Shown in pieces: positions 7,701 to 23,399 of a stretch of DNA of 23,399 bases; the stretch's first letter is position 1, and each line of letters starts with the position of its first letter. Below the pieces are notes generated by a model. It ran no database searches. It saw nothing but the letters and a program-made list of their open reading frames with translations, and was not told the DNA's origin. The stretch spans positions 1-23,399 of IMG/VR virus record IMGVR_UViG_3300032087_006008. One strand, given 5' to 3'. The stretch comes from a virus. The position numbers and the translations under genes are program-made.

Positions 7701-7908
7701 TAAGTTTTAATAAGGTTCCGTGCTTATCACAAAGGCCTGCAATTTCGCCTTCAGTTAATAAATCTATGGTTTGATAAAAAGAAACAGACTCTAAATTGAT
7801 ATGCCCATTGTAATGGGAAAGATCAGCTAAAGGACAAACGCGCTTAAATGTCAAAGCTTCATCTAAGTTTTCAACATCGTATATATTTTGTTTTGGATTA
7901 TTAGGCAT
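4711..7908 (-). CDS. J: gpJ-like tail tip attachment / host-specificity protein
   Basis: This 1065-residue protein is close to the length of lambda gpJ (1132). The central hub of the tail tip, gpJ contacts the host receptor and joins gpL and gpI. Visible family features are the N-terminal FYQTIDLLTEGEIAGL stretch (about residues 44-59), which matches the usual 'DLLsEGpI.Gl' start. Near residues 399-420 it has NPAWVFYDLATNKRYGVGKY, like the 'P.wi..D.l...ryG.G' signature. Near 730-765 it has a TGQEGSYLKPGDVIKVQD segment, like the 'pGDvi.v.D' strand of J proteins. The last 150 residues are FN3-like and beta-rich. Its ATG overlaps the end of the gpI-like gene by 8 bases, which suggests translational coupling. 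The receptor-binding C-terminal region of lambda J is not recognisable here and may instead be provided by the following gene. Assignment to the J family is firm; the receptor is unknown. Confidence 0.9.
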   Translation of the reverse strand: MPNNPKQNIYDVENLDEALTFKRVCPLADLSHYNGHINLESVSFYQTIDLLTEGEIAGLCDKHGTLLKLTNDTNGNEDGLKGIYLNDAPVKNTDANTLNFNRVFADFKTGSKNQTGLAKSNNTSLSFDKAAVTSNFNVMLPGLASSQSIVTGKGDTFNVVGEGGSPYNLCRVWNTISTDGKFGVGAFGRNFVYNIKDANTIDKVKTAEKAQVISINHVITNDNVNEVQINMVTNGLRYSHSDGDISNAAVNFVIKVGYVDDEVTLASGEGSVIYLICGIEGKLSSPYARTYNVPLPVSGSAKRDRVVKIFRVDRELRLPIKFQKSLGVQNISEIVKGTYTYPNSSLIGMVFDARAFAQPPSRRFDVKMTKVSVPSNYNPETRSYDGNWDGSFKNSKEWTDNPAWVFYDLATNKRYGVGKYGFKSEFVDKWNLYSVGKYCDEFVPTGYSGKYGNMDFTCSSGGVVITIDDSSNTKGADKMLERYPEGGIVCLFDLKNSSSENLDKASKRVIINPSYNTSDNTFSFKIVKIPDAEYVLKEYPDVKADYLLQAQGSKLDTQKFLIDYLIHKQNTSSTFVADYRAGEPLDLGVTNGSSATQFYGFKNLVEPRFRCNLFLDRKQNAFNALNDIAAIFRGMIYWSSGYISVSNDQSREAVMLFTNANVADGQFVYSGSAETSRSTAVIVRFNDENDSYKPKTEYLEDPASVRQYGYIDKEIIALGVTSRAQAHRLAKWMLYTNQTETDTIQFTTGQEGSYLKPGDVIKVQDKLKTSKRYGGRIKGIDYGEKTLTLDEGIQENIVNQKITVIVPRENKTIRSLNKKAESKIRIAIKNQEVNEGIPDSDLDSSREPQIKQFTIASVSETNVITISETTDEDFNLIKKGFIWSVQNTNTDYEIEEVEYRIIGITEQNSNQYQVTGMMYNRTKFAAVDESRSIENTQQSKSNISVGALPTPLSGDTPISITNVTILKGAILPYFEASFPDIQANDENYYINIDFSSLAVANGVTFTNTGGYIVEVFKSSGERIRFSLSGHDNTTASVLIGSLKSQSNLSVDIYRYDPSFKVDVGF

Positions 7909-8623
7909 CTATTTTCTTTTCGACTATCAAATTTCTATCATCTACGAAAAAATTTCCAACACCCACCCCAACCATAGTCCCGCCCCCTTCAGAAAAACTG
8001 GTCGGAACGCTATTTCCAGTGTTTATTGAGCCGGAGTTAAATGAGTTAGCTCCAGAATTATCAACAATTGATCGATCACTATTAACAATGTTGACCGATA
8101 TAACTCTACTGCCAATTTGCATGCGGCCATACCCCACAGGCACAACAACTCCTTGCCTAGTGATGTTTTCCGCCTGCCCAAATATAAAAGAACTAGTATT
8201 TAGAGATTCTGGGTCATCGGGCTTGAGTATTTTAGCTATCAATAAGCTTATACCAAAAGAAAGCGCCGCCATTAAGACTGTGCCCACAACAAAATTAACT
8301 ACTTTAATAGTCATGGCAGTAGCCGTAGCGGTTGTAATCGCGGCTGTAATAGCTGCAGTTGTTGCAACAAGGCCTCCCATCAAAAGAGGAATAATCAAAA
8401 CTTCTTTTCCTTTTACATTTACATTAAAGTCATTTTTATCGCAAACCTCCTTGCCATTCACAAACACAGCAAATCTTCTTCTGCCATTGCCTTGCAAATA
8501 GCTTCTAAATTTTCCTGTATTGGCTTCAATAGCAGAAAAAACCTCTCTTAAATTTCTAGTTTTAAACGAAAAGTTCTTTCCTATTACTTGGCCTAGCCTA
8601 CCTTCAAGCGAAACTGTAGTCAT
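7901..8623 (-). CDS. I: gpI-like tail assembly protein
   Basis: The 240-residue protein sits between the K-like and J-like genes, as gpI does in lambda. Lambda gpI is needed for tail-tip assembly, where it acts with L, K and J. The N-terminal 73 residues look like the ubiquitin-like (TAPI) domain of the family, with a 'FAVFVNGKEV' strand at 51-60. Residues 75-132 form a long hydrophobic Ala/Thr/Val/Leu stretch compatible with one or two membrane helices. Residues 146-176 have the family's C-terminal pattern, a phenylalanine-glycine start followed by VVVPVGYGRMQIGS. The tail from about 177 is a low-complexity Ser/Asn/Gly linker ending in a charged tip. The ATG at 8623 is 19 bases past the K-like stop, the longest intergenic gap in the window, with a weak AGG close upstream. 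The family call is confident from motif plus position; topology is inferred. Confidence 0.85.
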   Translation of the reverse strand: MTTVSLEGRLGQVIGKNFSFKTRNLREVFSAIEANTGKFRSYLQGNGRRRFAVFVNGKEVCDKNDFNVNVKGKEVLIIPLLMGGLVATTAAITAAITTATATAMTIKVVNFVVGTVLMAALSFGISLLIAKILKPDDPESLNTSSFIFGQAENITRQGVVVPVGYGRMQIGSRVISVNIVNSDRSIVDNSGANSFNSGSINTGNSVPTSFSEGGGTMVGVGVGNFFVDDRNLIVEKKIDA

Positions 8624-8642
8624 TACCTATTATTATACACAT

Positions 8643-9047
8643 TTAAAGTGAAAAATAAATTAGGTTCTTGTTTTTTGGGGTATAAAATGAAAATTTTTTA
8701 TCTACAGTGGAATATATCAAAAATGGCCGATTTATCTCATCTGAAGTAAAAATATCAGATTCGCTTGGTTTTGCTCCGCCTAAACAATGAGAATGAAAAA
8801 AAAATATAACTTTTTTGTATATTTTAAAATAATCTTCCGGATCGATGAAAAAAGTTTTCTTTGGGTTTTTTGATAAATTTTTAAAAAAATATAGCTTTTC
8901 TTTTGTAGCTGCCCCACAAATTTCAAAATCACAAGCATGACTTGCGACCGAAATATGTTGCAAAAAATTTTTATTAATATCTGTACTTTTCAATAGATGG
9001 AAATCCGCCAAATGGAATGCCCGGAGAATAAACGCCCGCTTCAACAT
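8643..9047 (-). CDS. JAMM/MPN (Prok-JAB) metallopeptidase, gpK N-terminal-domain homologue
   Basis: A 134-residue frame carries a complete JAMM zinc-protease signature. It consists of a catalytic Glu in FEICG (E42) and H85-x-H87-x7-S95-x2-D98 in HSHCLGGAKPSESD. Lambda gpK has this domain at its N-terminus followed by an NlpC/P60 cell-wall peptidase domain. Here the protein stops right after the JAMM domain, and no NlpC/P60 domain is visible in the next gene. The frame overlaps the end of the L-like gene by 74 bases. The ATG at 9047 lacks a good Shine-Dalgarno sequence and adds residues unlike the family N-terminus. A TTG at 8993, preceded by GGCGGA, would give a more usual start and cut the overlap to 20 bases. 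The role is probably processing or maturation of a tip protein during assembly, inferred from family and position. Confidence 0.85.
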   Translation of the reverse strand: MLKRAFILRAFHLADFHLLKSTDINKNFLQHISVASHACDFEICGAATKEKLYFFKNLSKNPKKTFFIDPEDYFKIYKKVIFFFHSHCLGGAKPSESDIFTSDEINRPFLIYSTVDKKFSFYTPKNKNLIYFSL

Positions 9048-10428
9048 ATCTACATTTGCAAGCGTTTAGATTTTTGGCGCAAGAATCAGCTCTCCAGTAA
9101 GTTTGTTCGTAACGAGGATCTTTTGAAGTATCGACTTCTGCTATACATACAAAAAACAAATCAGGCTTAATTGATGTATCTTCCTGCGTAGAACTTAAAT
9201 CTTGCTTAGATAAATTCTCAATCTTAGATGTAATCCTCACAACATCTCCTGCTACATATTTAGTTGAGCCTGAAACTCCGTCTGCAAGTCCAGCACTAAG
9301 AATTCCAGATAAAGAAGTGGCAGATTCATCAGCATCAGCATCTAATTTTAAAGTAACGCCCGTGCTAAAAACAATCGTTCTGTCTTTTTCGATTGAGCTG
9401 CTAATTGCATCCACTGAAACTGCTTGGGCTACTGTTCCTGTTTCGTTATCTACCACCGTACCATTTAATTCACCAGAAATGCTAGTTGCACCTGCTGAAG
9501 CAGAACTACTTAAAGTAAATTTAGCCCCATTAGAAAAAGTAACAACTTTTTCATTGGCAATATCAACGGGAAGTGCATCTACAGTCATAGAAGTAGCTCC
9601 ATCTGACGCAGCACCATTTGCTGTTACCACCGATAAAGTTGCGGCGCCATCTGTTGTTACAGTGACACTATTCTTGTCATAATCTCCCTGCCAAAGCAAA
9701 TTTAAAGCGTAGCCGTCGCTATCTGTAAATTTTTTATTGTTTTCGTCTGCAACGGGCATGCCCAGATTAACACTATTGCTTTTAGCAAAAAAAGTACCAG
9801 CAGTAACCAGATCGCCATTAGCCATTAACATTGCTTGTTGAGAAAAGTCATCTCGCTGTCCGTATAGACATCCCTCTCCTCTGTACTGCCATGTACAATA
9901 ATCAGCTATCATGGTTCTGGCTGGAATTTGTATATCCTCTAATTCTAAAGGGGAAACCAATTCAAACTCAACAAAATATTTACTTTCTTGAACTTTTCTG
10001 TTTATAGTAAAAATATCGTCGTCAAATCTAGAGTCTGGATCAGCAACGCCAAAAGGATTAAAATCATTAGGAAAATTTTCATCATCTAAATATTTCAAAA
10101 AAATCCTCTTCCTGATGATAGTGCTGCCTACTAAATCATTTCTTCTTTTTAATACATCGGTGATTATACCTCCGGGGTTGGCGATAAGAATTTTTGGCCT
10201 AGGAAGCTGTCCATCTCCACGCATTTCAAATCCGCTAGCTTCTATAGGCATAGGAAAATAAGTTTGCAATACTCCGTTTTTATCACGCAGCATTATGTCT
10301 TTTAAGTCGTTTTTGCCCGGATGAAATCTATACAAGCCTTCTTGCTCGCCCAAATCGAGTTCGTATAACTCAATTAAAGTATCCGGCTCTAAATTTAATA
10401 AAGCTGAGTTGTGAGTTTGAGTAGACAT
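8974..10428 (-). CDS. L: gpL-like minor tail (tip) protein with inserted tandem repeats
   Basis: The product is 484 residues from ATG 10428, two bases after the previous stop; lambda gpL is about 232. The lambda protein sits in the tail tip and binds an iron-sulphur cluster through four cysteines. The same four are visible: C178 and C187 in a YCTWQYRGEGC segment, and C450 and C457 in DSCAKNLNACKCRY. The C-terminal GIPFGGFPS is the family's 'lPFGGFPs' end. The spacings C-x8-C and C-x6-C are what I recall for lambda. Between C187 and C450 lie about 260 residues, including two similar units at about 281-333 and 336-388 (VDALPVDIANEKVVTFSNG and VDAISSSIEKDRTIVFSTG). Both are followed by an ATS-(I/L)-SG strand. 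This is an inserted decoration, probably surface exposed. A TTG three codons upstream is a poorer start. Cluster binding is inferred from the family. Confidence 0.9.
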   Translation of the reverse strand: MSTQTHNSALLNLEPDTLIELYELDLGEQEGLYRFHPGKNDLKDIMLRDKNGVLQTYFPMPIEASGFEMRGDGQLPRPKILIANPGGIITDVLKRRNDLVGSTIIRKRIFLKYLDDENFPNDFNPFGVADPDSRFDDDIFTINRKVQESKYFVEFELVSPLELEDIQIPARTMIADYCTWQYRGEGCLYGQRDDFSQQAMLMANGDLVTAGTFFAKSNSVNLGMPVADENNKKFTDSDGYALNLLWQGDYDKNSVTVTTDGAATLSVVTANGAASDGATSMTVDALPVDIANEKVVTFSNGAKFTLSSSASAGATSISGELNGTVVDNETGTVAQAVSVDAISSSIEKDRTIVFSTGVTLKLDADADESATSLSGILSAGLADGVSGSTKYVAGDVVRITSKIENLSKQDLSSTQEDTSIKPDLFFVCIAEVDTSKDPRYEQTYWRADSCAKNLNACKCRYVEAGVYSPGIPFGGFPSIEKYRY

Positions 10429-10430
10429 AT

Positions 10431-13400
10431 TTACCAACTAGGTCCTATGTTAAATCCTGCAAAGTTAGTTTTATTTTTCAATTGATTTCTATCATTTGCG
10501 TCGTTTTTATTAGCAGAAGATTGAACTTTTAGTTTTTTGTTACTAAAGTGGCCCAATAAATTTTCTCTTTCTTTTTCAGATAATGGCCCTTTAAATATAG
10601 CAATATCACTTATACTACCATAATAAAAAGATTGGTCATTGTAATTTTTATCTCTAACAAATCCTATTCTAGGTTTAGTAAGCCAATCATAAGTATTAAC
10701 GTTCCTAAATCTTTTTGTGCAAACTAATTCTAAATCATTGTAAATATTGTAATAAATGTAAGACCCTATCCTATAAGAAGAAATGGAATACATCCACGCC
10801 CTCAAAGGATCTTTAGATCCTGTAAAATCAAAAAAGTTTACACCATATCCTTGAGGTAACCCAGTGTTCTCATAAGTTCTTGCTGATGCTGAGGTTCCTA
10901 CTTGATAGTAGAATGCTGGGATAGCAGTTTCCCTTCTTGTGGATTGATTTAATTGATTTTGCTTAGCCGACCACTGATGTAAAGGCCTAGATTTTATAGC
11001 CGCATCGTATCTAGGAGGTCTTTTGTCCACTCTCCAAAGCCCAACCTTACCCCTATCACTAACTCTAGAGTCTGGAGTATACCAAGTACTATGCTGTGAA
11101 GCTTCATTGCCATCTAAAGATGTAACGCTCGGATATAAGAAATAAACTATTTCAAATCCCTGCATAGAGTTTTCTATTCTACCGCTTCTAACAACATTAA
11201 AAAGCTCCCCGCCACCCGCTTTAAGAGAATTATTGCTACCAAAAAATACGGTATCCTTATTATTAAATGAAGAGTAATACGCACTAGCGTTAGGAGTGCT
11301 ACTCGTTACAAGGATGGGCCTATAGTTTCTATCAGGTGTAGTTGTACCATTACCATTATTATTGTAAAATTGTATGTACATACTGGTATCGTTTTTAGCC
11401 TTCCACTGATTTATTTCAGAATATGAACCCGCGGCAGTAGTGTCAAAATATGTAGAGCTTGTATCTTCGGTTGTAAACCAAGCCACTAAATCTGGATAAT
11501 TTGTGGAATTTGGAATTTTACCATCTTGGTATTGAACTAAATCGTCAAAAGTAGAATAATTTGTATTCCCGTCAATAATTTTTATTGCTTCGCCCGCTTT
11601 ACCTCCAGCTGCAGGCTCTGAATCTGTAGCGTTTCTGTAAATTTCATTGGCGTTAACATCTAAAGGCGTTTCTCCGTCTTCGCCAAATACACCACCTCTT
11701 CCGCCTATAGATACATGCGTATCAAAATTTGCGTCTGTGCCAAGTCCTGCACCTTCAAATGATCCTTGATTTTTAGCAAAAATATAAGAACTACCTTGAT
11801 CTTTAGAATACCCGCCTTCAGATAAACCAAATCCTTGGCCGCCTCCTCCAAGACCTCCGTAATGTTTACCAAAAAAATCTTCAACTTTTAAATTGATCAA
11901 GCCCGGATTATCACTGCTTGATCTGTTTGGAATAGTAATCTTTATCGTTCTGTCTTTGTCATCACTTATAACTCCGTCATTAACTGAGACTCTGTCGTAT
12001 ACGAGCCTATCTATTCCGGGCGATGATAAATTATATGTAGGATTTTCAGAAAAAGCAAACGCTTTAGGAAAAAAGAATGGATCTCCTCCGCCTCCGCCTC
12101 CGCCTCCTCCATATATTCTAGCGGTAAAATGTTTTTTGATTTTTAGCTCTGAAATAGCTGTGTCATTTATGTAAATTGCGGCAGAACCATCTCCGCCTGC
12201 GTCTGAGTTGGTAGTTTCAGTTTTGTCAAACTGTATTTTCCCAGATTGATGCTGAGGCCTCGGAGTGCCGTCGAATAGTTTTATCTCAGTGAACCCTCCG
12301 TTTCCTCCGCTTCCGCCCAAACCTGCAACAGTAGAATTTTTATGCAAAATTAAGTTAGATTTTATTTCAGTGCTTCCATATTTTAATTGAGCGCCAGAAG
12401 TAATGCCAGCATTTGTTGTTTTCGTGGATCCTACTTTATAATTTTCTGCCACTATAAAATGAACTCCAGAATAACTGTAATCAGCGTGTGTGGGATCAAA
12501 GTTGTTAACGCTCGCTCCAATATTAGTTAGTCTGTTGTCAAATTCTGTTTTTAGATTTATATTTGCCTGCCTATCATCAAAAAATATTTTTAACGCGCTT
12601 GGGCTATTTGAATCATTAGCTATAACAGTGCTAGGATCTGTTGTAGGACTTAAAGTTGTACTGCCACTCAGCAAGCCTCCATTTATGTCTGCGTTTGTTA
12701 TTTCTACATTGAAGTTATCAACTGGATAACCGTAAACATAAGGACTTTCATAATATATAGATGAATCTCTATCTATGTATTGGCTTTTTATTCTATAGTA
12801 ATAATTTGCATTAAAATCTAAACTAGACACAGTGTACTCGCCATATGGAGTTCGCGGGTTATCAGGAGTACCTCTAGTGTGTAACTGTGCTATACCTGTG
12901 TTTGTCGCATATTTGTAATATTGAAATTCCCCCGCTTCAAGATCTCCGCCTTGAGTTGTTAAAGTTCGGTTTATGTCAAAATCAAATAATCCAGTCCAAA
13001 CACCAGTTGCAACACTGCTATCTTCTATATTCCCTGCGTATTCAATTTTATATCTTTGAAAATAATATCCAGAAGAAGGATGCTGCCATCTTAAGACTTG
13101 TTGAGGCCTACCGTTTGCGCCATAATCTGTTGTAACTAAAAACCCTGATGGATGAGCCGGTATAGTTGTGGTAAATGGGCCGGTGCCGCCACCAAATCCT
13201 GTCACCTGACCAGTTATCCCAACTATAATATTTCCGTCTGTATCTGGCTGAGCATTTTGAAGAGATCTTGTGGACAAATTAAAACTAGATACCCAAGTGC
13301 CATTTATATCTGGACCGGTCGCACCTACCGCAGGACCACTGATATTGTCTTGCGAAAAGGTCATTTCAAAGGGTATAAATTTTGTAGTACCGGCTAGTAT

Positions 13401-13610
13401 GTCAAATTGTTGGCCGCTTGGAAAATCAAAAATACCCAAAACAGGCGCCTCTGAATACGAAAGTTCAGTTCTGATGGGATAGTTTCCGCTATTGGTAAGA
13501 TAAAAACCAGTTCTAATACCAAAACCAGTTACGCCAGTTAAAGACATTCCTGTGTTAGCGACAAAACTATTACCTTCCGCTCTGCTTGTTACTGTACTTG
13601 GTAAAGACAT
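10431..13610 (-). CDS. Large adhesin-like tail protein: FN3-like, glycine-rich and LamG-like regions
   Basis: I do not recognise this 1059-residue protein as a named phage gene. Residues about 157-290 look FN3-like, with strands of the YYYRIKSQYIDRDS type. Residues about 427-677 are glycine-rich with separated clusters: GLGGSGGNGG, nine consecutive glycines at 501-509, YGGLGGGGQGFG, IGGRGGVFGEDG, and a final AAGGKAGEAIKI, which is the usual closing motif of such domains. Residues about 690-1025 resemble a concanavalin/LamG-type beta sandwich, ending in ISDIAIFKGPLSEKEREN, the common 'i.e.i.iy...Ls..e...l' close of these lectin-like domains. Glycine-rich sandwiches occur in phage receptor-binding adhesins such as gp38 of phage S16, so surface or glycan binding is likely but inferred. 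It begins with TAATG coupling to the M-like gene, and its position between M and L is not found in lambda. Confidence 0.85.
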   Translation of the reverse strand: MSLPSTVTSRAEGNSFVANTGMSLTGVTGFGIRTGFYLTNSGNYPIRTELSYSEAPVLGIFDFPSGQQFDILAGTTKFIPFEMTFSQDNISGPAVGATGPDINGTWVSSFNLSTRSLQNAQPDTDGNIIVGITGQVTGFGGGTGPFTTTIPAHPSGFLVTTDYGANGRPQQVLRWQHPSSGYYFQRYKIEYAGNIEDSSVATGVWTGLFDFDINRTLTTQGGDLEAGEFQYYKYATNTGIAQLHTRGTPDNPRTPYGEYTVSSLDFNANYYYRIKSQYIDRDSSIYYESPYVYGYPVDNFNVEITNADINGGLLSGSTTLSPTTDPSTVIANDSNSPSALKIFFDDRQANINLKTEFDNRLTNIGASVNNFDPTHADYSYSGVHFIVAENYKVGSTKTTNAGITSGAQLKYGSTEIKSNLILHKNSTVAGLGGSGGNGGFTEIKLFDGTPRPQHQSGKIQFDKTETTNSDAGGDGSAAIYINDTAISELKIKKHFTARIYGGGGGGGGGDPFFFPKAFAFSENPTYNLSSPGIDRLVYDRVSVNDGVISDDKDRTIKITIPNRSSSDNPGLINLKVEDFFGKHYGGLGGGGQGFGLSEGGYSKDQGSSYIFAKNQGSFEGAGLGTDANFDTHVSIGGRGGVFGEDGETPLDVNANEIYRNATDSEPAAGGKAGEAIKIIDGNTNYSTFDDLVQYQDGKIPNSTNYPDLVAWFTTEDTSSTYFDTTAAGSYSEINQWKAKNDTSMYIQFYNNNGNGTTTPDRNYRPILVTSSTPNASAYYSSFNNKDTVFFGSNNSLKAGGGELFNVVRSGRIENSMQGFEIVYFLYPSVTSLDGNEASQHSTWYTPDSRVSDRGKVGLWRVDKRPPRYDAAIKSRPLHQWSAKQNQLNQSTRRETAIPAFYYQVGTSASARTYENTGLPQGYGVNFFDFTGSKDPLRAWMYSISSYRIGSYIYYNIYNDLELVCTKRFRNVNTYDWLTKPRIGFVRDKNYNDQSFYYGSISDIAIFKGPLSEKERENLLGHFSNKKLKVQSSANKNDANDRNQLKNKTNFAGFNIGPSW
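12084..12110 (-). repeat. GGN codon tract encoding nine consecutive glycines
   Basis: Nine consecutive glycine codons, a mix of GGA and GGC, encode residues 501-509 of the adhesin-like protein. The tract is flanked by tyrosine on one side and DPFFF on the other. Because GGA/GGC triplets repeat, the tract is a candidate for in-frame slippage. Confidence 0.9.
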
Positions 13611-13612
13611 TA
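13608..13612 (-). other. TAATG stop-start overlap, gpM-like to adhesin-like gene
   Basis: Stop TAA and start ATG share one base. Only a weak AAGA lies upstream, so translation of the large adhesin is likely coupled to the M-like gene. Confidence 0.85.
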
Positions 13613-14824
13613 TCTTATGTATGGATCAATTGTTATCAAAGAAGTAAACTCCACTTTTTCATTTAATATATTAATTGGAAACTCTACAAAGTTTACACTT
13701 ACCGTATTGTTATCTTTGTAATTCATGGTATGTTCCCATTTTGGACATACAAAAACTTTATCTGCTTTATCATATGGTGCAGGCATCTTAAATGAAAATT
13801 GATTTTTTCCATATTTATGTTCTAAAAAATGAACCATAGCTTTTGCTTCTGCGTCAGAACGTCCTTCAAAAGCAAACTCAATATTTAATAAAGCTTTATT
13901 TAACCCGTCAGGCGTTCTTATAAAGTAATCACTTTGCATAGGCTGTTTCAAAAACCTAGGCTTTTCTTCAATAGATACTCCCTTGTTTACGTCAAAATAA
14001 AAATTATCTTTTGTCCATAAAGATGTATCGCCTCCATTTGGGCCATTTGAATCAGTTGCAGTTGTCGAATCTGCACCGGTATAATAGTACCATCCTGAAA
14101 CTGAAGGCGTGTAAGCTCCATCGCCGCTTAAATAAGCTATATCATGTGTGTTGTATGTTTGCCCTGCGGACCAAAATTTTCTAGTTTGATTAAATGGTAT
14201 ATAATATTCTTGCCAATTTAATGTAGATTGATCTTCTCTATGTAAAGTGGTCGAAGCTGAATTGACATTAGGGTAATCAAAACCACGAGAAAAATCTTCT
14301 ATGTAAAATTCATGCTCGTTATCATAAGGAGCAAATGGAGTATAATATATGCCAGTATAAGCTCCGCTTGGTGGAGTGCCTTTTTGCCCTTTATTAAACG
14401 AATCTTCAAATAAATGAATCAAAGCTCTGGTTTCTTTATCGCTTCTTTTATTGTATGGCAAATTGAATTTTACTTTTAAAGAGTTTTCGCTTTTGTTCGC
14501 AAAATTATAATATCCATCTCCATAAGTGGCGTTATAAGTTTGGTTTTCATACGACACGGATGCTCCATAAGAAGGCTCGAAAAATAACTTTTGAGTCCAG
14601 ACGCTATCTGCCCCTACGGGAGAATTTGCCGTGGTAGAAGTGGCTGCTGTATCTCCGCTATAATAATAATGGCCAGTAACTGCTGGAAAATATTCCGTGC
14701 CGCCATTGGTATAACCGCTAAAAAATACAATATCATATTTTGAATAGCTGTTGCCAATTTCAAAAGAATCAACCCCATGTATATTGGTGACACCAGAGCC
14801 TAAAACGTAAGATTGGTTTGCCAT
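13610..14824 (-). CDS. gpM-like minor tail protein with duplicated domains
   Basis: The 404-residue protein appears to hold two copies of a two-part unit. The side module (about 21-83 and 217-280) reads like 'Y...DI....G......GhYYYsGd.a.t....P.G.dS.WT...FF', for example GWYYYTGADSTTATDSNGPN in copy two. Each is followed by an M-like domain (about 90-196 and 282-394). These have a hydrophobic strand, RSDxE(T/A)+A(L/M)(I/V)HFLE-type helices at 117-131 and 312-326, and an aromatic PYD strand (FAPYDNEHEF and MPAPYDKADKVFVCPKWEH). Lambda gpM is only 109 residues and has the matching helix-then-strand order. A fused double M domain would change the tip ring symmetry or replace two copies by one. 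The Trp/Tyr-rich modules might bind carbohydrate. The gene is coupled by TAATG at both ends. M assignment rests on pattern and gene order. Confidence 0.72.
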   Translation of the reverse strand: MANQSYVLGSGVTNIHGVDSFEIGNSYSKYDIVFFSGYTNGGTEYFPAVTGHYYYSGDTAATSTTANSPVGADSVWTQKLFFEPSYGASVSYENQTYNATYGDGYYNFANKSENSLKVKFNLPYNKRSDKETRALIHLFEDSFNKGQKGTPPSGAYTGIYYTPFAPYDNEHEFYIEDFSRGFDYPNVNSASTTLHREDQSTLNWQEYYIPFNQTRKFWSAGQTYNTHDIAYLSGDGAYTPSVSGWYYYTGADSTTATDSNGPNGGDTSLWTKDNFYFDVNKGVSIEEKPRFLKQPMQSDYFIRTPDGLNKALLNIEFAFEGRSDAEAKAMVHFLEHKYGKNQFSFKMPAPYDKADKVFVCPKWEHTMNYKDNNTVSVNFVEFPINILNEKVEFTSLITIDPYIR

Positions 14825-14826
14825 TA
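14822..14826 (-). other. TAATG stop-start overlap, into the gpM-like gene
   Basis: Stop TAA and start ATG share one base. A GGAAGGG lies about 12 bases upstream, a possible though distant ribosome binding site. Confidence 0.85.
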
Positions 14827-15645
14827 GTAAAAGACCCTTCCCGTTAAGTATTCTTGAGATGCTGATACTGTACCATCTATATAACCTCCCTCGGAAACAG
14901 ATAAATTTTGATTAAAAATTTGACCTGTGCAACCAAAATTGGCCAAAGCAGTATTTCCGTAAGCATCGAAAACATTTATGTTTAATGCTGCATAATTTCC
15001 TGTTATCCCTATCGCCTCACCAATATCTTCACCTGCAATAGATAAGCTAATTCTAACATCTTCTTTTGTTACTCTGGAGGGCAACTCATTTCCTACAGTA
15101 ACAACAGGGTTTCTGGAACAAGACACTGAATAATCGAACGATACTTTTTTATTAACTCCTATATCTGTTCCTGCCATATACGTTTTTAGTCCATGTGACA
15201 CGTTTCTTTCATTTCTCAATAGGTTGTCAGTTTGGCCTTCGTTATCTAACACTTCTGTTAGTGATGGACTTGGAGCTTGCAGCTCTCCGTATATATCCAT
15301 CTGAGATTTAAACAATATGGGACTAAAAGGTGAGACTGAAAAACTTAAACTTTTTATGTAACCGCTGGAAAAAGTGACGCCAGCTAAACTACCCTCTACC
15401 GGCTCACCAGTATGTTCGATAGCGGTAAGAGGATTTAAAAAGTCATGAAAAGCTCCTGTGCAATAGTGAGAAAAAGAGAGCGTGCCTTTAACCGGAGAAC
15501 TTGGAGCATAACGAACAAGTGAACCAGTAACGTTTGTGATTGGCTGCAAAGAAGCTTCTACTCCTAACTCCGCAGATTCGGCCATAATGCTTTGGTCTGC
15601 GATTTTAAGTAAAGCTTTTTCGTATTTTATAAATTTAGTGGCCAT
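14824..15645 (-). CDS. Tail structural protein, possible tube-like fold, paralogue of 17513-18451
   Basis: I cannot name this 273-residue protein from a family signature. It is beta-rich with no membrane segment or catalytic motif. It resembles the 312-residue product of 17513-18451 in several ordered places. These are an N-terminal 'G...S.......+..........p..G..s......' stretch, a central GYIKSLSFSVSPFSP strand ending in IYGEL (residues 95-122, against GYLTSYSINCDVQ ending in FGQL), and a C-terminal strand with a D-G turn. The pattern of strand pairs recalls the beta-sandwich tube fold used by tail-tube and distal-tail proteins; this is inference. It starts with TAATG overlap after the fibre-like gene and ends with TAATG into the M-like gene, so it is probably made in proportion with them. 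Confidence 0.7.
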   Translation of the reverse strand: MATKFIKYEKALLKIADQSIMAESAELGVEASLQPITNVTGSLVRYAPSSPVKGTLSFSHYCTGAFHDFLNPLTAIEHTGEPVEGSLAGVTFSSGYIKSLSFSVSPFSPILFKSQMDIYGELQAPSPSLTEVLDNEGQTDNLLRNERNVSHGLKTYMAGTDIGVNKKVSFDYSVSCSRNPVVTVGNELPSRVTKEDVRISLSIAGEDIGEAIGITGNYAALNINVFDAYGNTALANFGCTGQIFNQNLSVSEGGYIDGTVSASQEYLTGRVFY

Positions 15646-15647
15646 TA
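15643..15647 (-). other. TAATG stop-start overlap, fibre-like gene to 14824-15645 gene
   Basis: Stop TAA and start ATG share one base and no good Shine-Dalgarno sequence is visible upstream, so the downstream gene probably depends on coupling. Confidence 0.85.
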
Positions 15648-17510
15648 AAGAGTATCATCTATATAAAATTCAACAGTAAATTGAACATTTAAATTTGCAT
15701 TCCCGCTATCACAATCAAAAGAAAACATCAAATAATCTCCTTGGCTAAAATCTAAGTTAGATTGGCCGCCAGCATTACTGCCTGCAAAATTACTATAACC
15801 TAATGTCACTTTTTGGTTCGCGTCAGCAGCCAGATGTAATTGGCTATTAGCCGTTGTGCCCTCATCATCAAAGCCTTGCACGTAAGCTGAATCAGTTGTT
15901 GTTAATTTTGTACCGGCGGGCAAGCTACTGCCGGTGTATACATACAAGGTCATGTTAGTTTGGCTTGACTGGTTATTTTTAGCGGCAGCCCGAATAGACA
16001 AAATTCTTCCATCATGTGGCGCAATTGATGCCCATTTGGCAGTTATAGTATTTCCTTCTGTATCATCGGTTCGGTCGAATGGGGGCGCCAAAAGAGGACT
16101 GAAAGGCTGCAATGCAGAGGCGTAATAAGGCACTGAAAAAGTTTGTAAAAATCTTCCTCTACAATAATTTCCAGCAGTATTCCCTCCTTGATCATAATAT
16201 GCAGACGCTTCCATTGTGCCTTTAAATCTAACGTTGCCGCTAGTATCCAAACGCATTGCGTTGTTTGTAGTATTCGTGTCGAAAACATATTGACCATCAG
16301 TTGGCGCTGCCTGACTACTATAATGAATCATAAAATAATTGTTGTCTGGATTGGCATTGTCTTTGTATGCCCCAGTCATCCAATTTGCTATTTCATTAGA
16401 TCCAATTTTATTGGGAAATGCAATTAAACTATGCTGATCCGCAGCCGCAGCATTCGAAGTATTTCTTATTAATATTTTAGTTCCATTGTTGTCAGAGGAA
16501 TTAAACTCACCCACAATATTATTACTGTCAGTAACATTAAACTTGCGAGTAAATCCAGTTGCACCCACATCCAAGCTGCCTGCTCTAAAATTAACAGAAT
16601 CAGAACCAAGAGTAACTGCAGAAACATTTCGTATTCCTAAATTAGTTCCGTCCCAAACCATTTGTTGCTCTAAGGATGTAGAACCGACTGTTCTTGTAAA
16701 TCGTAAAATTGAATTGGGGGATCCGCTAGCAACTCTGTTTTCTAATTTTAATGCTACATTATCTGCCCCAGAGCTTTCATAAACGTGTAATCTTGCATCT
16801 GGAGATAGCTCATTTATTCCAACTCTTTTATTCGAACTTTTTGCAAATATAGCCGCAGCGCTTGTATCTCCAACTATGTGAACGTCTTGACTAGCAGATT
16901 TCTCTAAAAATAATCCGCTTTGTGATTTAACTTCTCCTGTACTCGGATCAAGAATTACGTTATTAGTTCCAGTCGCAGCTAAATCACCTACTACTTCTAA
17001 TTGATAGCCAACAGTTGCGCTTGACGGATTTACTCCAATTCCTACATTACCGTTGGTTTGAATAATTAAGACATGTGAACTGCCATTATAAATTGAAAAT
17101 AAATCAGCTACTCCTGCTCCTGTAAAATTTCCATGAGGCGCATAAATGGACCATGTTTGCGCATCATTTTTCATGACTAAATGAGGATATCCATTTGTAG
17201 CATTAGAATAAATTCTTAAATTAGCTGTTGCCACAGCTGTAGTTTCTAAATCTAACTTATAATCCGGCGTGTTTGTTCCGACTCCAACATTCCCGCCATC
17301 TTTGATAAAAAGACCATAATTGCCACCATCATCAGTAATTTTTAGCCCACCGCCATCTGCTGCCCATATTTGATATTTTTTGTTAAGGTTGGTGATGGAG
17401 ACATGTTTTGTAGTCGGATTTGTAGATGATTCATTATAATCCCCAATAAATAACAAATCATTTACGTTTGGAGGTCCACCTAAATCGTTATATTCTAATA
17501 TTTTGCCCAT
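15645..17510 (-). CDS. Fibre-like structural protein with GNVGIG repeats and C-terminal beta sandwich
   Basis: The 621-residue protein opens with a linker of the kind seen in many phage fibres, with 'PPNVNDLLFIGDYN' at about 13-26. It has GNVGVGTNTPDYKLDL at about 73-88, NGNVGIGVNPSS at about 153, and KRVGINELSPDARLHV at about 228. Each opens a module with strands of the 'L.v' type, like those in the protein at 1-4708. The last 180 residues (from about 435) have no repeats and look like one compact beta sandwich, with strands such as MTLYVYTGSSLPAG and a final VQFTVEFYIDD. That end is a plausible trimer cap or receptor-binding head. Trimeric fibre function is inferred. It sits between two paralogous structural genes, two bases after the first and overlapping the second by one base. 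Confidence 0.78.
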   Translation of the reverse strand: MGKILEYNDLGGPPNVNDLLFIGDYNESSTNPTTKHVSITNLNKKYQIWAADGGGLKITDDGGNYGLFIKDGGNVGVGTNTPDYKLDLETTAVATANLRIYSNATNGYPHLVMKNDAQTWSIYAPHGNFTGAGVADLFSIYNGSSHVLIIQTNGNVGIGVNPSSATVGYQLEVVGDLAATGTNNVILDPSTGEVKSQSGLFLEKSASQDVHIVGDTSAAAIFAKSSNKRVGINELSPDARLHVYESSGADNVALKLENRVASGSPNSILRFTRTVGSTSLEQQMVWDGTNLGIRNVSAVTLGSDSVNFRAGSLDVGATGFTRKFNVTDSNNIVGEFNSSDNNGTKILIRNTSNAAAADQHSLIAFPNKIGSNEIANWMTGAYKDNANPDNNYFMIHYSSQAAPTDGQYVFDTNTTNNAMRLDTSGNVRFKGTMEASAYYDQGGNTAGNYCRGRFLQTFSVPYYASALQPFSPLLAPPFDRTDDTEGNTITAKWASIAPHDGRILSIRAAAKNNQSSQTNMTLYVYTGSSLPAGTKLTTTDSAYVQGFDDEGTTANSQLHLAADANQKVTLGYSNFAGSNAGGQSNLDFSQGDYLMFSFDCDSGNANLNVQFTVEFYIDDTL

Positions 17511-17512
17511 TT

Positions 17513-18451
17513 TTAGTCTTTATTGTAATAGTCTTTAAATTCTAAATTTACACTTAAAACACCATCAACACTTGATTCAATACTCTCTGACACCAAATGT
17601 CCAGTCGTGCTTAAAAATTCATATCTTGTTATGCCGTCGCCGTCGTCTCCCAAACAATCTCCATTATTATCCTGCAAACAAAGCTTGTCTCCAACTACTG
17701 CATGGCCATCTAAGGTTTCTGATTTTTTGCCAAGTCTAATTTCAACGCCCAAAGTTTGATAATTACCACTTCTAATATTGTCGATCATGTTGGCTGTTTC
17801 ATAATCATCCATCTCAATAGTTAAGTTGGTTGTAATTTCTATCGGATATTCAGTTAATACTTCAGACGGCGCATAATATATTTCGCTAGTCTTTTGATCT
17901 AACGTATAAATAGGAATGCGGTTGATGTTATAACTTTGAGAGGCCGAAACTGCTCTATTAGTGCCCGAACCATCAAAAGTTAAAAATACTGATTCATGAT
18001 TAACGACACCTAAATTTTGAAGGGGAGCAACGCCCGAGTAGTCTAATTCACCTTCTCTGACGCCGCTCCCCAACTGGCCAAAAACAGCAAAACTTGACTC
18101 GATTGTCGGGACGTCTTGCACATCGCAATTTATACTATAACTGGTTAGATAACCGGTGTTAAATCCATATACTTTTTCTGCTCCGTCTAATTCAACTCCA
18201 TATAATAAAGTGCCAGAAACTGGAGCTTCTCCAGTCAAGCCTAAAACTGGATCTTGATACAGCATGTCGCGGGTCATTGACATTTCGCCACGAAGAGGCT
18301 CGGCTATCACTTCTTGCACGAAGCCTGCACCTAAAGCCCTAATTGTTTTTTGAGCAACGCTATACCCCGCACTTAAATTACGTATACCAGATACACCGGT
18401 TCCACCGAGGTAAAAAATTTGTTCGTAACTTGGTGAGGCGTTGTTGGGCAT
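17513..18451 (-). CDS. Tail structural protein, possible tube-like fold (paralogue of 14824-15645)
   Basis: The 312-residue, acidic, beta-rich protein follows the tape measure with a TAATG overlap. No enzyme motif or membrane segment is visible. Its middle has GYLTSYSINCDVQDVPTIES (from residue 100) closing in FAVFGQL, and a later strand run PIEITTNLTIEMDDYET. An acidic, calcium-loop-like DNNGDCLGDDGDG sits near 263-275, and a D-G turn before the last strand. These landmarks recur in order in the 273-residue protein at 14824-15645. In lambda the tail tube gene lies before the tape measure, so this may be a distal-tail or baseplate-like ring rather than the major tube; the true tube gene is expected beyond the right edge. 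The metal-loop idea is from residue pattern only. Confidence 0.72.
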   Translation of the reverse strand: MPNNASPSYEQIFYLGGTGVSGIRNLSAGYSVAQKTIRALGAGFVQEVIAEPLRGEMSMTRDMLYQDPVLGLTGEAPVSGTLLYGVELDGAEKVYGFNTGYLTSYSINCDVQDVPTIESSFAVFGQLGSGVREGELDYSGVAPLQNLGVVNHESVFLTFDGSGTNRAVSASQSYNINRIPIYTLDQKTSEIYYAPSEVLTEYPIEITTNLTIEMDDYETANMIDNIRSGNYQTLGVEIRLGKKSETLDGHAVVGDKLCLQDNNGDCLGDDGDGITRYEFLSTTGHLVSESIESSVDGVLSVNLEFKDYYNKD

Positions 18452-18453
18452 TA
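18449..18453 (-). other. TAATG stop-start overlap, tape measure to 17513-18451 gene
   Basis: The tape measure stop TAA and the next ATG share one base. An AAGG lies just upstream. This favours re-initiation by the same ribosome, keeping the two products in a set ratio. Confidence 0.85.
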
Positions 18454-21400
18454 TCCTTGTCTTGATGTTTTGCTAAGAGAGCCTCCTAGCCTTTGTTCAT
18501 CTTGTATAACTTGAAGAACGGCTGAGCGAATTCTTTCGCTCAACTCTTTTCCTTCTGTAGCTCGATCTCTGTTGCTTTCTTCGTTAGCGTTTTTGTTGCC
18601 AGTGTTGTCGGAGCCTTGGTTTGAACCTGCGCCACCAACGTTTACATTTATTGAAATGTTGTTTGTATTAGCGCCAGTTTGATTGTTCAATGGTGCAGCT
18701 TGTGGACCGACCATACCTCCTGCTTGCATAGTCGGAATCAATCCTCCGTTTAATCGACCCATGAAGCCAAGACCGTACTTGCGTACAGCGCGATTATTCA
18801 TTACAAATTCGCCACCTGCCATGTAAGCTGGAACGCTGTCTCTATTTATGAAGCCGCCAGAAATTTTACCCCCACCTTTACCTTTAGCATGAGCTTGACC
18901 ATGTATATTGAAAAAGTTTCTTCTTGCGTCTGGACCGGTGCCCAGATAACTCATCTCATCGAACGCATTCTCGAGCCTAGCGTCAATGCGGGCATTCAAC
19001 GCCCTCTTAAATGACTTAGGTACCCTGTGTTTCATTGAAGGGTCTAACCCCAAGTTAGTTGCCTGAACACCAGTTAAGAACTTTTGGCCTTTAAATTGAG
19101 CAAGTGCTGCGTCACTACCTTCTATATTATAACCTTTCAAAAATGAACCTGTTCGCGTTAGCGCTAAACTTTCACCGGCATCATTTGTGGTTCCAGCTGT
19201 CATTTGTTCCATCTGTTTAGCGTTTTGTCCTTCTTGGATTCTTCCGCTGATAGCGCTAATTCCCTTGGAAATTCCCACGCTCATTAAGGTGCTCAAAAAC
19301 TGTGTTTTCAGGGCTTTTCTTTCCGCTTTCTTTTGCTGCTTCTTTTGGTACTCTTCCATAGCTTTTTCTCTAGCTTCGGCCAATTCCGGATTATCAGAAG
19401 CTAAAAAGTAACCACTCATACGATCGCTTTTTACGCTTTCGTTTAGCGTCATCATTCCACCGTTTGCAAAGCGAGGAAATGAACCAAAATTTAAGCTATC
19501 TAAAACCGCTTTGCCTCCCATTCCTCGAACAGCCTTTCGATTTAAAACATATTCTCCATCTTCAAGTAAGGCAGGATTTCTATCTCCAGTTCTGTTGCCA
19601 GAAATATACATTCCGTTTCTTGCTTTTATAATTCCTCCGTTTTGAGAATTACGAAAGCCCGAATCTGCCATTCCAAGCAAATTAGTAAAGTTACTCATCG
19701 AATACTCAAGTGAAGCGCGACGAATCATTTTCAACATATCAATAGCAACGCCTCTCATAGCATCTCCAAAAGTTTCAGCCTTGTCTAATGACACTTCAAG
19801 TGCATTAACCATTCCGTCTCTGAATGCAGTTGGCAAATCTCTTCCCAATCTACCATATATATATTCTGTTTCTTCGTATATATCTAGCATACCTTCTGTA
19901 AATTGGGTTCTAAAAGAACGCGCATCCTGATCCAAACTTATTTTTCTATTATTAGTTTGTTCGCGTAGTTCGTCAGATATAGCTTGTTCAGTATCTAGTT
20001 TCTTTTTACCTAAATTGATTTCTCTTAGTAAAGCGTCTATTCTTCTTTTTTCTGCTTTTCCTACCTGATCGTCTTCTAATTGTGCTCGACGCTCATTCAA
20101 CTTTGTTATTACTTCTTCTTGAGTTTTAACATCTTCTAATGTTGCGGCTAAATTTTTTGCTGCCTTTTCTTCAGTTTCATAATCAAATTTTCTTTCGCCT
20201 AAAGGATTATCTACTCTTACCGGAGGTAAACTTCCACTTTCAGGTATCGCGGAGGCGCCTCCCCCCATCTTACGGTTTAAAATACCTTTTCTTTTTGCAT
20301 CAAATGCTGCTTGAGCTGGAGTAGCGAACATATCTGCACCAGCCATCCGGGCATCTTTAAGGTTTGCATATCCAAGCCTTGTAGCATCAGCTTCTGTGAA
20401 ATTGGGACGAGATCCCATAGCCACTAAGTCACTTTGTTTTTGAAACTCAAATATCAATTCTTGCATAGTATCATTTAAAGAATTTTGTGATTTGAGAAGC
20501 TCATTATCTAATGCGATTTGTTGCTTCTGTACCAATAAGGCATTTGCTTTTTGTACGCTACTTTGAGTAGCCTCCGCCCTTCTTCCTTCAAATTCTAAAT
20601 CTGATATTTGCCGCTGAATTGCTGCTCTTGCTTTTATGCGTCTACTTTCCGTATTAAGTCCTGTGCCGCGAAAATTACGAGGATCTTCAAGGCTGCCTTG
20701 CAATATATTTATTCTACGTTGGCGTGTCGCATTCTCATCTACTAAATTCATTGCGCGACGATTTTCCATAGCGCTCATTGCATCAGTTAAAATAGCCTGT
20801 CTTTCAGTATTTTCTCTTCGTTTTTGTTCTACTTCTAATTTGGCCTGTGTTATTTTTTCGTCTAAATTAATATTTGTTAATTGGTCATTATAAGTAATGC
20901 GTAATTCATTTATTAGTTTGGTGAGCTTTTCTTGTTCTTTACTATTAGCCGAAGTAAATTCAGCGAAAGCGTCTAATCCGGCGTTAATGTCTTGAGAAAA
21001 AAGATTGGCAGCTGCCTCTAACTTTCTTATGCTTATATCTCCAGCAGCCGATTGGCCTGCTTTAATTGCATCCATTATTCTGGTAGAATTTGCTTGCGCG
21101 GTTGTGGCTATTAATTTAGCGCGCTGATCTGCAAAACCAGCACTAGCTTGGCCCTGCGCCAAACTTCCGATTGATAACCCCCTACCAGCCCCGCTTAATA
21201 AATCTATCCTTTCTGTGGTGAATGCTTTTCTAACTTTTGCTATGTTATCAAGTGATTTAACCATCGAGCCTAAACTTTCGGTAAGGCGGGTGATATTAGA
21301 TTTTGCATTTATAAAGCTTTCTTGAGCAAAATCTATTTCCTTACCAAGAGCGCTGCTGGAGTCCCCCAGTGATTTTGTGGTTTGCTGAAAATCATTTACT

Positions 21401-23399
21401 AATTTTACTACCTCCGCAAAACCCACGAAACTTTGTTTTGTAAATTGATTATTAACCTGAATTTCATCTGCAAAAAATCTTCCATCTGTAACCTCCTGCA
21501 AACGTTGAAAGAAATTGCCTAAATTCTCCGCATCTTTTTCGTCAAACCCAGCTCGAAAACTTACTAATTTATCTGCTATTGCGCTCGCATCAAAAGCGAA
21601 ATCTCCTCTACCTTCTCCAAACAGTGCCATTATACCACTCCCGCCTTCTTCAGCAAGCAGGTCACTTAATTCTTTCATTTGGGCTTCATTTAAATTGCCC
21701 ATAAGCTTGAAAAAATCACCATATTGTTTTTTAAGATTACTTAAAGCTGTTTTGTCTAAATCAAAGCGTATTCCGTCTGGCCCAATCGATCTTGTTAAAA
21801 TACGATTTGCGTCCTTTTCCGTCCCTATCCCCCCGCCTTCTTCTTGCAAACGTTTAATATTAGTAGCTACTCTTCCTCCAATCGCTCCAGATTCTCTCCT
21901 TAACTCATATGCTTCTAATTTTTTAACCATTTCGTCAACACTAGTGCCCGCTTCACTGAAAGCAGTTTGAAGATTTACATCTTTAATCTCATCAAAGTTT
22001 TTAGCTAAACGTTTTTGCGCGTCTTCAAATTCTTCTGGTGAAATAGCCGCAGCTAAATCTCGTGACGCCTGAATATATTCACGCGCCGCGTTAGTGTTGT
22101 TATCAGTTTCTTGTTGGTATTCTTTGGATTCTCTTTCTAATTGCTCAAGACTTTTTCCAGCATCCATTGCAGACACCCCTAGACCAATCAAAGCTCCTCC
22201 CACTCCACCAATAGCGGCTCCCAATGGACCAAACATCATGCCCATGGCCGCGCCTGTACCCGCACCTGTCAAAGCTCCAGATAAAACTTGGCCTGTTGCA
22301 TTGCCTTCTCCGAATCCTTGCTCAATGGCTCCAGCCAACATAGGAGCCCCCATTGTTAAACCCATTCCTACTCCCATACCGCCCATAGGGCCACGGCTCA
22401 TGCGTGCGTTCAAAGCGCTCATACGACCTCCTATACCTACTGCACCGCCCCTACTAGCTGCTAATCTATCTGCTGCAGCAGCTCTACGGTTAACAGCTGC
22501 AGTTACTTTTTTTTCTGCCGCATTAGTCAGCTGCATACTTTGCGTTAATTGTTTAGTTTTTGCATTCAACTGTTCACGGCTCATGTTACCTTTACGATAA
22601 TCATTTATAGCATCATTTAATTCTGTGGCAAGTTGTTTTTGTAGCGATTCTATTAAAGCAGCATGGCCTTTTCCTTTTTTAGCTGTTAGTCCTCCCGGCA
22701 AATTTAAAGCGTAATTTGGGACATATCCTTTGGAAGCTCCAACTACATCTTTTAATCCTCTAGGCTCATCCCGTGTGTTTGTTACAGCTAATCCAGCTGG
22801 GTTATTAGGCCCAGCCAATCTGCTTGAACGCCCCACACGAATAGATCCCAAAGGAACTCCTGCGGCAGCCTCTCTTTCTACCGCATCTCCAAGTGCAGCA
22901 AAATTAGGAACATAACCTCCCGCAGCGCGCCCTCTATTTTTTAATACCTGCTCTGCAAACTTGCCGTCATTACCTTGGCTAACCGAACCTTTAAAATCTC
23001 CAAATCTTGCTGAGGTCTTCATGCCTCCAACAAATAATTTTTTTACAGCAGGGCTCATGACCGTATCTAAAGTCATTCCGTCTGGAGTAGCATTTTTATC
23101 GTTGACCATTCGGCCGATCAAAGCTTCAAAAAATGCTCCCTTAAGAGCAGCTATTGCACCGGGAGCACCTTCTTTGCTCATGAATGGTTGCAATTCTTGC
23201 TCTGAAACAGGAATTTTTTTGACAAATTCAGGGTGTATACTACTGATCACAGTGTTAGCTGCGCTAACTATACTATCATCCAAAACTTCATCAATTTTTA
23301 CTAAATTGCTAAGTTGATTTTCTGCATTATTAGCAATACCTCTTCTATTAAAAATAACTCCTTCTGCACCGTATTGTTTTACTTTATCTGCGCTTTTAA
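18451..23399 (-). CDS. Tape measure protein (N-terminus beyond right edge)
   Basis: The frame is open from the stop at 18451 to the right edge, at least 1648 residues. An apparent TTG start at 23283 is not the real one: 38 further codons upstream are open and read as ordinary protein. The tape measure fills the tail tube and sets its length. Evidence is the size, a Gly/Ala/Met-rich hydrophobic zone (about nucleotides 22390-22170), and long charged helical, coiled-coil-like stretches (about 20930-20430 and 20180-19930). Repeated motifs known in tape measures are also present. Two are GGYVPNFA and KGYVPNYA near 22919-22896 and 22731-22708; two more are GEYVLNRKAVRG near 19557 and GEFVMNNRAVRKYG near 18815. 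No lysozyme or NlpC/P60 motif was seen. Position ahead of the M, L, K, I, J order supports the call. Confidence 0.92.
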   Translation of the reverse strand, partial: KSADKVKQYGAEGVIFNRRGIANNAENQLSNLVKIDEVLDDSIVSAANTVISSIHPEFVKKIPVSEQELQPFMSKEGAPGAIAALKGAFFEALIGRMVNDKNATPDGMTLDTVMSPAVKKLFVGGMKTSARFGDFKGSVSQGNDGKFAEQVLKNRGRAAGGYVPNFAALGDAVEREAAAGVPLGSIRVGRSSRLAGPNNPAGLAVTNTRDEPRGLKDVVGASKGYVPNYALNLPGGLTAKKGKGHAALIESLQKQLATELNDAINDYRKGNMSREQLNAKTKQLTQSMQLTNAAEKKVTAAVNRRAAAADRLAASRGGAVGIGGRMSALNARMSRGPMGGMGVGMGLTMGAPMLAGAIEQGFGEGNATGQVLSGALTGAGTGAAMGMMFGPLGAAIGGVGGALIGLGVSAMDAGKSLEQLERESKEYQQETDNNTNAAREYIQASRDLAAAISPEEFEDAQKRLAKNFDEIKDVNLQTAFSEAGTSVDEMVKKLEAYELRRESGAIGGRVATNIKRLQEEGGGIGTEKDANRILTRSIGPDGIRFDLDKTALSNLKKQYGDFFKLMGNLNEAQMKELSDLLAEEGGSGIMALFGEGRGDFAFDASAIADKLVSFRAGFDEKDAENLGNFFQRLQEVTDGRFFADEIQVNNQFTKQSFVGFAEVVKLVNDFQQTTKSLGDSSSALGKEIDFAQESFINAKSNITRLTESLGSMVKSLDNIAKVRKAFTTERIDLLSGAGRGLSIGSLAQGQASAGFADQRAKLIATTAQANSTRIMDAIKAGQSAAGDISIRKLEAAANLFSQDINAGLDAFAEFTSANSKEQEKLTKLINELRITYNDQLTNINLDEKITQAKLEVEQKRRENTERQAILTDAMSAMENRRAMNLVDENATRQRRINILQGSLEDPRNFRGTGLNTESRRIKARAAIQRQISDLEFEGRRAEATQSSVQKANALLVQKQQIALDNELLKSQNSLNDTMQELIFEFQKQSDLVAMGSRPNFTEADATRLGYANLKDARMAGADMFATPAQAAFDAKRKGILNRKMGGGASAIPESGSLPPVRVDNPLGERKFDYETEEKAAKNLAATLEDVKTQEEVITKLNERRAQLEDDQVGKAEKRRIDALLREINLGKKKLDTEQAISDELREQTNNRKISLDQDARSFRTQFTEGMLDIYEETEYIYGRLGRDLPTAFRDGMVNALEVSLDKAETFGDAMRGVAIDMLKMIRRASLEYSMSNFTNLLGMADSGFRNSQNGGIIKARNGMYISGNRTGDRNPALLEDGEYVLNRKAVRGMGGKAVLDSLNFGSFPRFANGGMMTLNESVKSDRMSGYFLASDNPELAEAREKAMEEYQKKQQKKAERKALKTQFLSTLMSVGISKGISAISGRIQEGQNAKQMEQMTAGTTNDAGESLALTRTGSFLKGYNIEGSDAALAQFKGQKFLTGVQATNLGLDPSMKHRVPKSFKRALNARIDARLENAFDEMSYLGTGPDARRNFFNIHGQAHAKGKGGGKISGGFINRDSVPAYMAGGEFVMNNRAVRKYGLGFMGRLNGGLIPTMQAGGMVGPQAAPLNNQTGANTNNISINVNVGGAGSNQGSDNTGNKNANEESNRDRATEGKELSERIRSAVLQVIQDEQRLGGSLSKTSRQG

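What the first reader, a model, noticed from the sequence alone, without database searches (positions are those of the whole stretch)
14824..18451. Two paralogous structural proteins flank a fibre: a three-gene cassette absent between H and M in lambda
The products of 17513-18451 and 14824-15645 share ordered landmarks, best in a 28-residue stretch with seven identities (GY.xxS.S...S...G.L pattern). A GNVGIG fibre gene lies between them. One reading is that each paralogue makes a ring or collar and the fibre is anchored between two non-identical rings. I know of no described system with exactly this layout.
Basis: partly seen in the sequence, partly recalled or inferred. Interest (0 to 1): 0.65.

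Follow-up and report, generated by a model that had tools for sequence, protein, structure and literature searches.

The report
Tail-tube paralogues flanking a fibre gene
In an uncultured phage with a lambda-like tail tip, two relatives of the protein that builds the tail tube are encoded on either side of a tail-fibre gene, and one of them carries an extra loop that is missing in exactly the relatives that lack the fibre, which points to where the fibre attaches.

Summary
The products of 17513-18451 (PA) and 14824-15645 (PB) are co-linear, full-length paralogues: profile-profile probability 95.9%, E 5.7e-9, against at most about 2% for unrelated families from the same genomes. They are not new ring or collar proteins. 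They are paralogues of the phage's own major tail tube protein, which lies on the opposite strand near the neck genes, and their (low-confidence) models match the T5 tail tube proteins pb6 and p140 in the PDB. The genes sit between the tape measure gene (H) and a lambda-type M-L-K-I-J tip.

The trio PA-fibre-PB was found in nearly all relatives. In two lineages PA and PB are adjacent with no fibre gene, and one of these is a secondary loss. In both, PA lacks a 28-47-residue segment (9-10 residues remain) that all fibre-bearing PAs have. In the closest fibre-bearing/fibreless pair this is the only length change in PA, and PB has none.

Best reading: PA is a T5 p140-like trimeric tube ring that carries the fibre through an added loop, and PB is a second tube ring. 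"Fibre clamped between two rings" is possible but not specifically supported. New variant of a known kind.

The parts
17513..18451 (-). PA, 312 aa: tail-tube-fold paralogue, predicted p140-like distal tube ring that carries the fibre
   Evidence: Paralogous to PB (95.9%) and to the major tail tube protein (96.3%) by hhalign; AF2 model matches T5 p140/pb6 and DT57C counterparts in the PDB, E 2e-6 to 4e-6
17636..17728 (-). PA residues about 242-272: inserted segment, candidate fibre-docking loop
   Evidence: Segment 240-279 is 28-47 residues in all PAs next to a fibre gene and 9-10 in all PAs without one; sole indel between PA of G013 (fibre) and G014 (no fibre)
18080..18163 (-).
   Evidence: Aligned with PB 92-119 in the full-length alignment
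15645..17510 (-). FIB, 621 aa: tail fibre with GNVGIG motifs
   Evidence: A fibre gene lies between PA and PB in 47 of 50 distinct PA/PB pairs (42 called as FIB, the other five) and in the fibre-bearing loci; most variable at residues 481-600 (mean identity 0.25-0.27)
17331..17510 (-). FIB residues 1-60: conserved N-terminal segment, candidate anchor
   Evidence: Most conserved part of the fibre, mean pairwise identity 0.51 versus 0.25-0.43 elsewhere
14824..15645 (-). PB, 273 aa: second tail-tube-fold paralogue, predicted distal tube ring next to M
   Evidence: hhalign to PA; AF2 model best PDB hits are T5 and DT57C tail tip tube proteins, E 3e-4 to 4e-4
15289..15372 (-).
18451..23397 (-). Tape measure protein (lambda H position), open at the window edge
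   Evidence: Longest tail gene, followed directly by PA in relatives; full-length relatives 2263-2342 aa
13610..14824 (-). M, 404 aa: distal tail protein made of two Phage_min_tail-like domains in tandem
   Evidence: PF05939, two stretches; halves match at 99.8%
8974..10437 (-). L, lambda-type tip protein
   Evidence: PF05100 Phage_tail_L E 7.8e-41
8643..9047 (-). K-like, JAB-type domain, 134 aa
   Evidence: phrog_30 E 4e-11; Prok-JAB below cut-off
7901..8623 (-). I, tail assembly protein
   Evidence: phrog_32 E 1.7e-28
4711..7908 (-). J, central tip protein
   Evidence: phrog_31 E 1e-134, PF13550

Best explanation
PA and PB are descendants, by gene duplication, of the phage's two-domain major tail tube protein (TTP). 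Like T5 pb6 and p140, each very probably forms a trimeric, pseudo-hexameric ring. The rings prolong the tube between the last TTP ring and the M (distal tail) ring of a lambda-type tip. The fibre encoded between them is a side fibre attached at this level. Its conserved N-terminus most likely docks onto the PA ring through a 28-47-residue loop inserted in PA's second tube domain. This does the job that the separate p132 collar does around the p140 ring in T5. Shown here: paralogy of PA with PB and with TTP, domain co-linearity, conserved gene order, and the insert/fibre co-occurrence with one coupled loss. Supported by low-confidence models: the tube fold. Inferred: trimeric rings, their stacking order, and direct docking of the fibre to PA.
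For: Paralogy of PA-PB and PA-TTP with negative controls. T5-type tube fold for both models. Gene order TMP-PA-FIB-PB-M conserved over more than 50 contigs. In L135, TTP-A-B-C tube paralogues are tandem with no fibre, like T5 where TTP T5.145 adjoins T5.144. The PA insert is present with the fibre and absent without it in two lineages; the nested loss is supported on the PA tree; the sole PA indel between sister genomes is the insert and PB has none. The FIB N-terminus is its most conserved part. T5 precedent: p140, a TTP duplicate, forms a trimeric ring that with p132 holds three side fibres (PMC10038345; PMC10713586).
Against: No direct sequence match to any solved tube protein, and PB has no detectable direct profile match to TTP, so its link runs through PA. 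The insert/fibre correlation rests on two independent contrasts. No structure or interaction data exist. The fibreless clade could have lost the loop for another reason.
Confidence: 0.6

Rival explanations
1. Sandwich: the fibre's N-terminus is clamped between the PA ring and the PB ring, and both paralogues are needed for anchoring.
For: The fibre gene lies between the two paralogues in 47 of 50 distinct pairs and in the fibre-bearing loci, and the three genes are nearly end to end.
Against: PA and PB both persist, adjacent and intact, in fibreless genomes. Only PA changes when the fibre is lost; PB keeps the same length. Gene adjacency does not prove contact.
Confidence: 0.2
2. Ordinary tail operon: PA and PB are tube-end rings needed for tail assembly, the fibre gene is a cargo insertion at a permissive spot, and the fibre attaches elsewhere (for example M, X or J). 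The insert correlation is coincidence or reflects another partner.
For: Outgroup L135 and the G014/G016 clade have PA and PB without a fibre between. X (between M and L) and a collagen-type fibre after J are other adhesin candidates.
Against: The PA insert tracks the fibre without exception over all fibre-bearing and fibreless PA sequences measured, and the two deletions are not contiguous in the DNA.
Confidence: 0.25
3. PA is the main tube-building protein and the gene taken as TTP is something else.
For: PA is well conserved (66% mean identity) and lies next to the tape measure gene.
Against: A separate, longer paralogue (mostly 412-534 aa, 383 in L135), as T5 pb6 is longer than p140 by its decoration domain, sits next to the neck genes in the relatives that extend there, often duplicated.
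Confidence: 0.12
4. The similarity of PA and PB is chance or compositional convergence of beta-rich proteins.
Against: Profile E 5.7e-9 with half-to-half specificity, and nothing comparable among unrelated control families.
Confidence: 0.02

Closest known systems
Phage T5 / DT57C p140 (DT57C: TTMP) ring with p132/LtfC collar and side fibre pb1/LtfA
   Same: A TTP-derived, two-domain protein without decoration domain, forming a pseudo-hexameric trimer between the last TTP ring and the distal tail protein, at the level where side fibres attach (PMC10038345, PMC10713586).
   Different: T5 has one such paralogue, encoded next to TTP upstream of the tape measure gene, and uses a dodecameric p132 collar. 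Here there are two paralogues downstream of the tape measure gene with the fibre gene between them, no p132-like gene recognised in the cluster, and a lambda-type M-L-K-I-J tip.
Lambda tail tip (V; H-M-L-K-I-J)
   Same: Order and families of L, K, I, J and the Phage_min_tail M protein.
   Different: Nothing lies between H and M in lambda. Lambda V and M form hexameric rings (PMC10721106), while here TTP, PA and PB appear two-domain and M is a tandem duplicate.
T4 gp48/gp54 tube-initiating rings
   Same: Extra TTP-like rings between the baseplate and the main tube (noted in PMC10038345).
   Different: Contractile phage; no fibre gene linkage known to me. Comparison rests on the paper, not tested here.

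Membership tests
Tail tube protein superfamily (two-domain, T5 pb6/p140 type) | Tube fold: beta-sandwich with flanking helix and long loop, present twice | tested here: inconclusive
   Models low confidence, but best PDB hits of both are T5/DT57C tube proteins. The internal N/C repeat is not detected by profile (paN-paC 3%)
Tail tube protein superfamily (two-domain, T5 pb6/p140 type) | Sequence relation to the phage's own major tail tube protein | tested here: met
   PA-TTP 96.3%, PA-PB 95.9%; PA HMM finds TTP E 1.9e-5. The gene is called TTP from its homology, length and position, not from a database name
Tail tube protein superfamily (two-domain, T5 pb6/p140 type) | Assembles as trimeric rings on the tail axis | not testable with these tools
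   No complex prediction or micrographs
T5 p140 (baseplate tube protein) family proper | Sequence homology to p140 | tested here: not met
   No PDB sequence hit for single or profile queries, no INPHARED hit; similarity is at fold level only
T5 p140 (baseplate tube protein) family proper | Accompanied by a p132 collar gene | tested here: inconclusive
   No extra gene in the PA-to-J cluster; an Ig-fold collar encoded elsewhere was not sought by structure
Lambda-type tail tip | M, L, I, J families in order after the tape measure gene | tested here: met
   PF05939, PF05100, phrog_32, phrog_31/PF13550 in order

The most novel reading that the evidence does not exclude
A collar-free side-fibre attachment system: a duplicated tube protein (PA) has gained a loop that directly receives a trimeric fibre on a fully threefold tail (two-domain TTP, PA, PB and tandem M), with loop and fibre lost together.
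Probability: 0.4. Interest if true: 0.65.

Novelty: new variant of a known kind. Interest (0 to 1): 0.52.

Why it matters
The T5 structure paper states that p140 and p132 are a landmark of the T5 family only and that side-fibre anchoring must differ in lambdoid phages. This group of uncultured phages joins a T5-style set of tube paralogues to a lambda-style tip. It offers a natural deletion (fibre and PA loop lost together) that narrows the likely docking site to about 31 residues, so how side fibres attach to non-T5 siphophage tails becomes directly testable.

Tried and rejected
PHROGs, Pfam and PDB sequence searches with PA, FIB and PB: nothing convincing. tblastn against INPHARED: no PA or PB relatives; FIB N-terminal third only weak cyanophage hits. 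GTDB genomes: no PB or TTP relatives, so no prophage and no host call. The first profile comparison with shallow alignments was inconclusive (1.4%) and was settled only after deeper sampling. Considered that the FIB-like hit in G016 (L153 1-2778) was a relocated fibre: rejected, because it is most likely the GNVGIG-rich end of the collagen-type fibre F split by the contig ends. The circular-shift null was dropped because it keeps the local alignment. PA and PB do not match M, L, K, I, J, X or FIB by profile.

Full report
What is there. On the minus strand the window runs: tape measure protein (18451-23397, open at the edge), PA (17513-18451, 312 aa), FIB (15645-17510, 621 aa, GNVGIG motifs), PB (14824-15645, 273 aa), M (13610-14824), X (10431-13610), L, a K-like JAB protein, I, J, and a collagen-repeat fibre. 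M, L, K, I and J are the lambda tip families in lambda order. In lambda itself H and M overlap with nothing between. PA, FIB and PB match no PHROG, Pfam or PDB sequence convincingly, and PA and PB have no tblastn match in 50,697 phage records.

Is the paralogy real? The full-length alignment is: score 89 against 37.7 +/- 6.1, maximum 68 in 1000 shuffles. With deep alignments the profile comparison gives 95.9%, E 5.7e-9, over profile columns 27-304 of PA and 52-282 of PB. Column-permuted controls average 15.4 with maximum 24.4, and the reversed control is 22.9, against 68.9. Each half matches only its own counterpart (N-N 92%, C-C 51%, cross pairs at most 2%). Among ten families from the same genomes, unrelated pairs stay at or below 2%. 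The one exception, M with X at 100%, I attribute to M-X fusion ORFs in some relatives; this was not checked in detail.

What they are. An HMM of PA finds a third gene in two long relatives (G2 29078-30529, E 1.9e-5; G1 33233-34699, E 3.7e-4), on the opposite strand beside the neck genes. Homology, length and place mark it as the major tail tube protein (TTP), though no database names it. PA against this family scores 96.3%. PB links to it only through PA. AlphaFold models from shallow alignments are of low confidence (mean pLDDT 48.6 and 50.2), yet of 350,542 PDB chains the best matches are T5 and DT57C tail tube and tip proteins for both (PA E 2e-6 to 4e-6, PB 3e-4 to 4e-4). The viral library gives several major tail proteins for PA. 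In T5, p140 is a duplicate of TTP at 9% identity. It forms a trimeric pseudo-hexameric ring below the last TTP ring, and the p132 collar around it holds three side fibres (PMC10038345; PMC10713586). So the fold and the place in the tail have a precedent.

Linkage. The order TMP-PA-FIB-PB-M-(X)-L-K-I-J is conserved in the viral contigs that reach it. Of 50 distinct PA/PB pairs, 47 have a 1.6-2.0 kb fibre gene between. The scan called 42 of these as FIB, and the other five had been identified as FIB. Three pairs are adjacent. A further scan added more fibre-bearing loci and one more fibreless contig (L171) of the same clade as G014 and G016. The fibreless cases are the G014/G016/L171 clade, nested among fibre-bearing relatives on the PA tree and therefore a loss, and L135, where TTP, A, B and a fourth paralogue C stand in tandem. 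T5 likewise has its TTP gene next to a second tail protein gene (T5.145, T5.144). The tandem array is therefore plausibly the older state, and the fibre-bearing trio a derived one; this is inference.

The new clue. The segment of PA between residues 240 and 279 is 28-47 residues long in every PA that has a fibre gene next to it, and 9-10 in every PA that has none. TTP is also short there by eye. Between the sister genomes G013 (fibre) and G014 (no fibre) PA differs in length only by this 31-residue piece, and PB, at 264 aa in both, has no indel. The piece is separated from the lost fibre gene by about 40 conserved codons, so the two losses are separate deletions. The fibre's first 60 residues are its most conserved part (mean identity 0.51; 0.25-0.27 at residues 481-600), as expected of an anchor.

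Mechanism. The best reading is that PA and PB form tube rings between TTP and M, and that the fibre's N-terminus docks on the PA ring through the inserted loop, without a T5-type collar. Shown: homology, order, co-occurrence. Inferred: ring formation, stacking order, contact. M is a tandem duplicate of the lambda M domain (halves 99.8%). Lambda M is a 109-residue hexamer (PMC10721106), so three copies of this M would make a ring, and TTP, PA, PB, M, L and J could all be threefold, matching a trimeric fibre. This last point is inference.

Limits. There is no isolate, no host call and no complex prediction, and only two independent contrasts of fibre presence and absence.

Noticed in passing
L096 6001-7458 and 7546-9102; also L093, L097, L098, L100, L101, L103, L104, L105, L128: Many relatives carry two major tail tube genes in tandem (about 55% identical to each other's family where compared), so some genomes probably encode four tube paralogues.
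   Followed up: partly
L135 6001-9696: Four tube paralogues in tandem (TTP, A, B, C) after the neck genes with no fibre between; the contig ends before the rest of the tail.
   Followed up: partly
13610-14824: M protein is a tandem duplication of the Phage_min_tail domain; the more distant relatives have larger M genes (587-960 aa), and in L075 one 1677-aa ORF at the place of M and X carries two Phage_min_tail stretches.
   Followed up: partly
L085 13233-18461 and the matching part of L089: The coding strand flips between the tail cluster and the neck/TTP genes, unlike the single-strand lambda layout.
   Followed up: no
8643-9047: The K-like protein is a JAB-type domain of only 134 aa, shorter than lambda K (199 aa).
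   Followed up: no
L147 6740-7929 and L148 5242-6458: Two I-like genes stand in tandem in these relatives.
   Followed up: no
2-4708; L141 1-3207; L153 1-2778: The fibre after J has collagen or SSGTSG repeats; in fibreless G016 a piece that is probably its end carries several GNVGIG modules, suggesting exchange of fibre modules between loci.
   Followed up: partly
10431-13610: X (1059 aa, glycine-rich, between M and L) matches nothing known and varies strongly among relatives; a second candidate adhesin.
   Followed up: no
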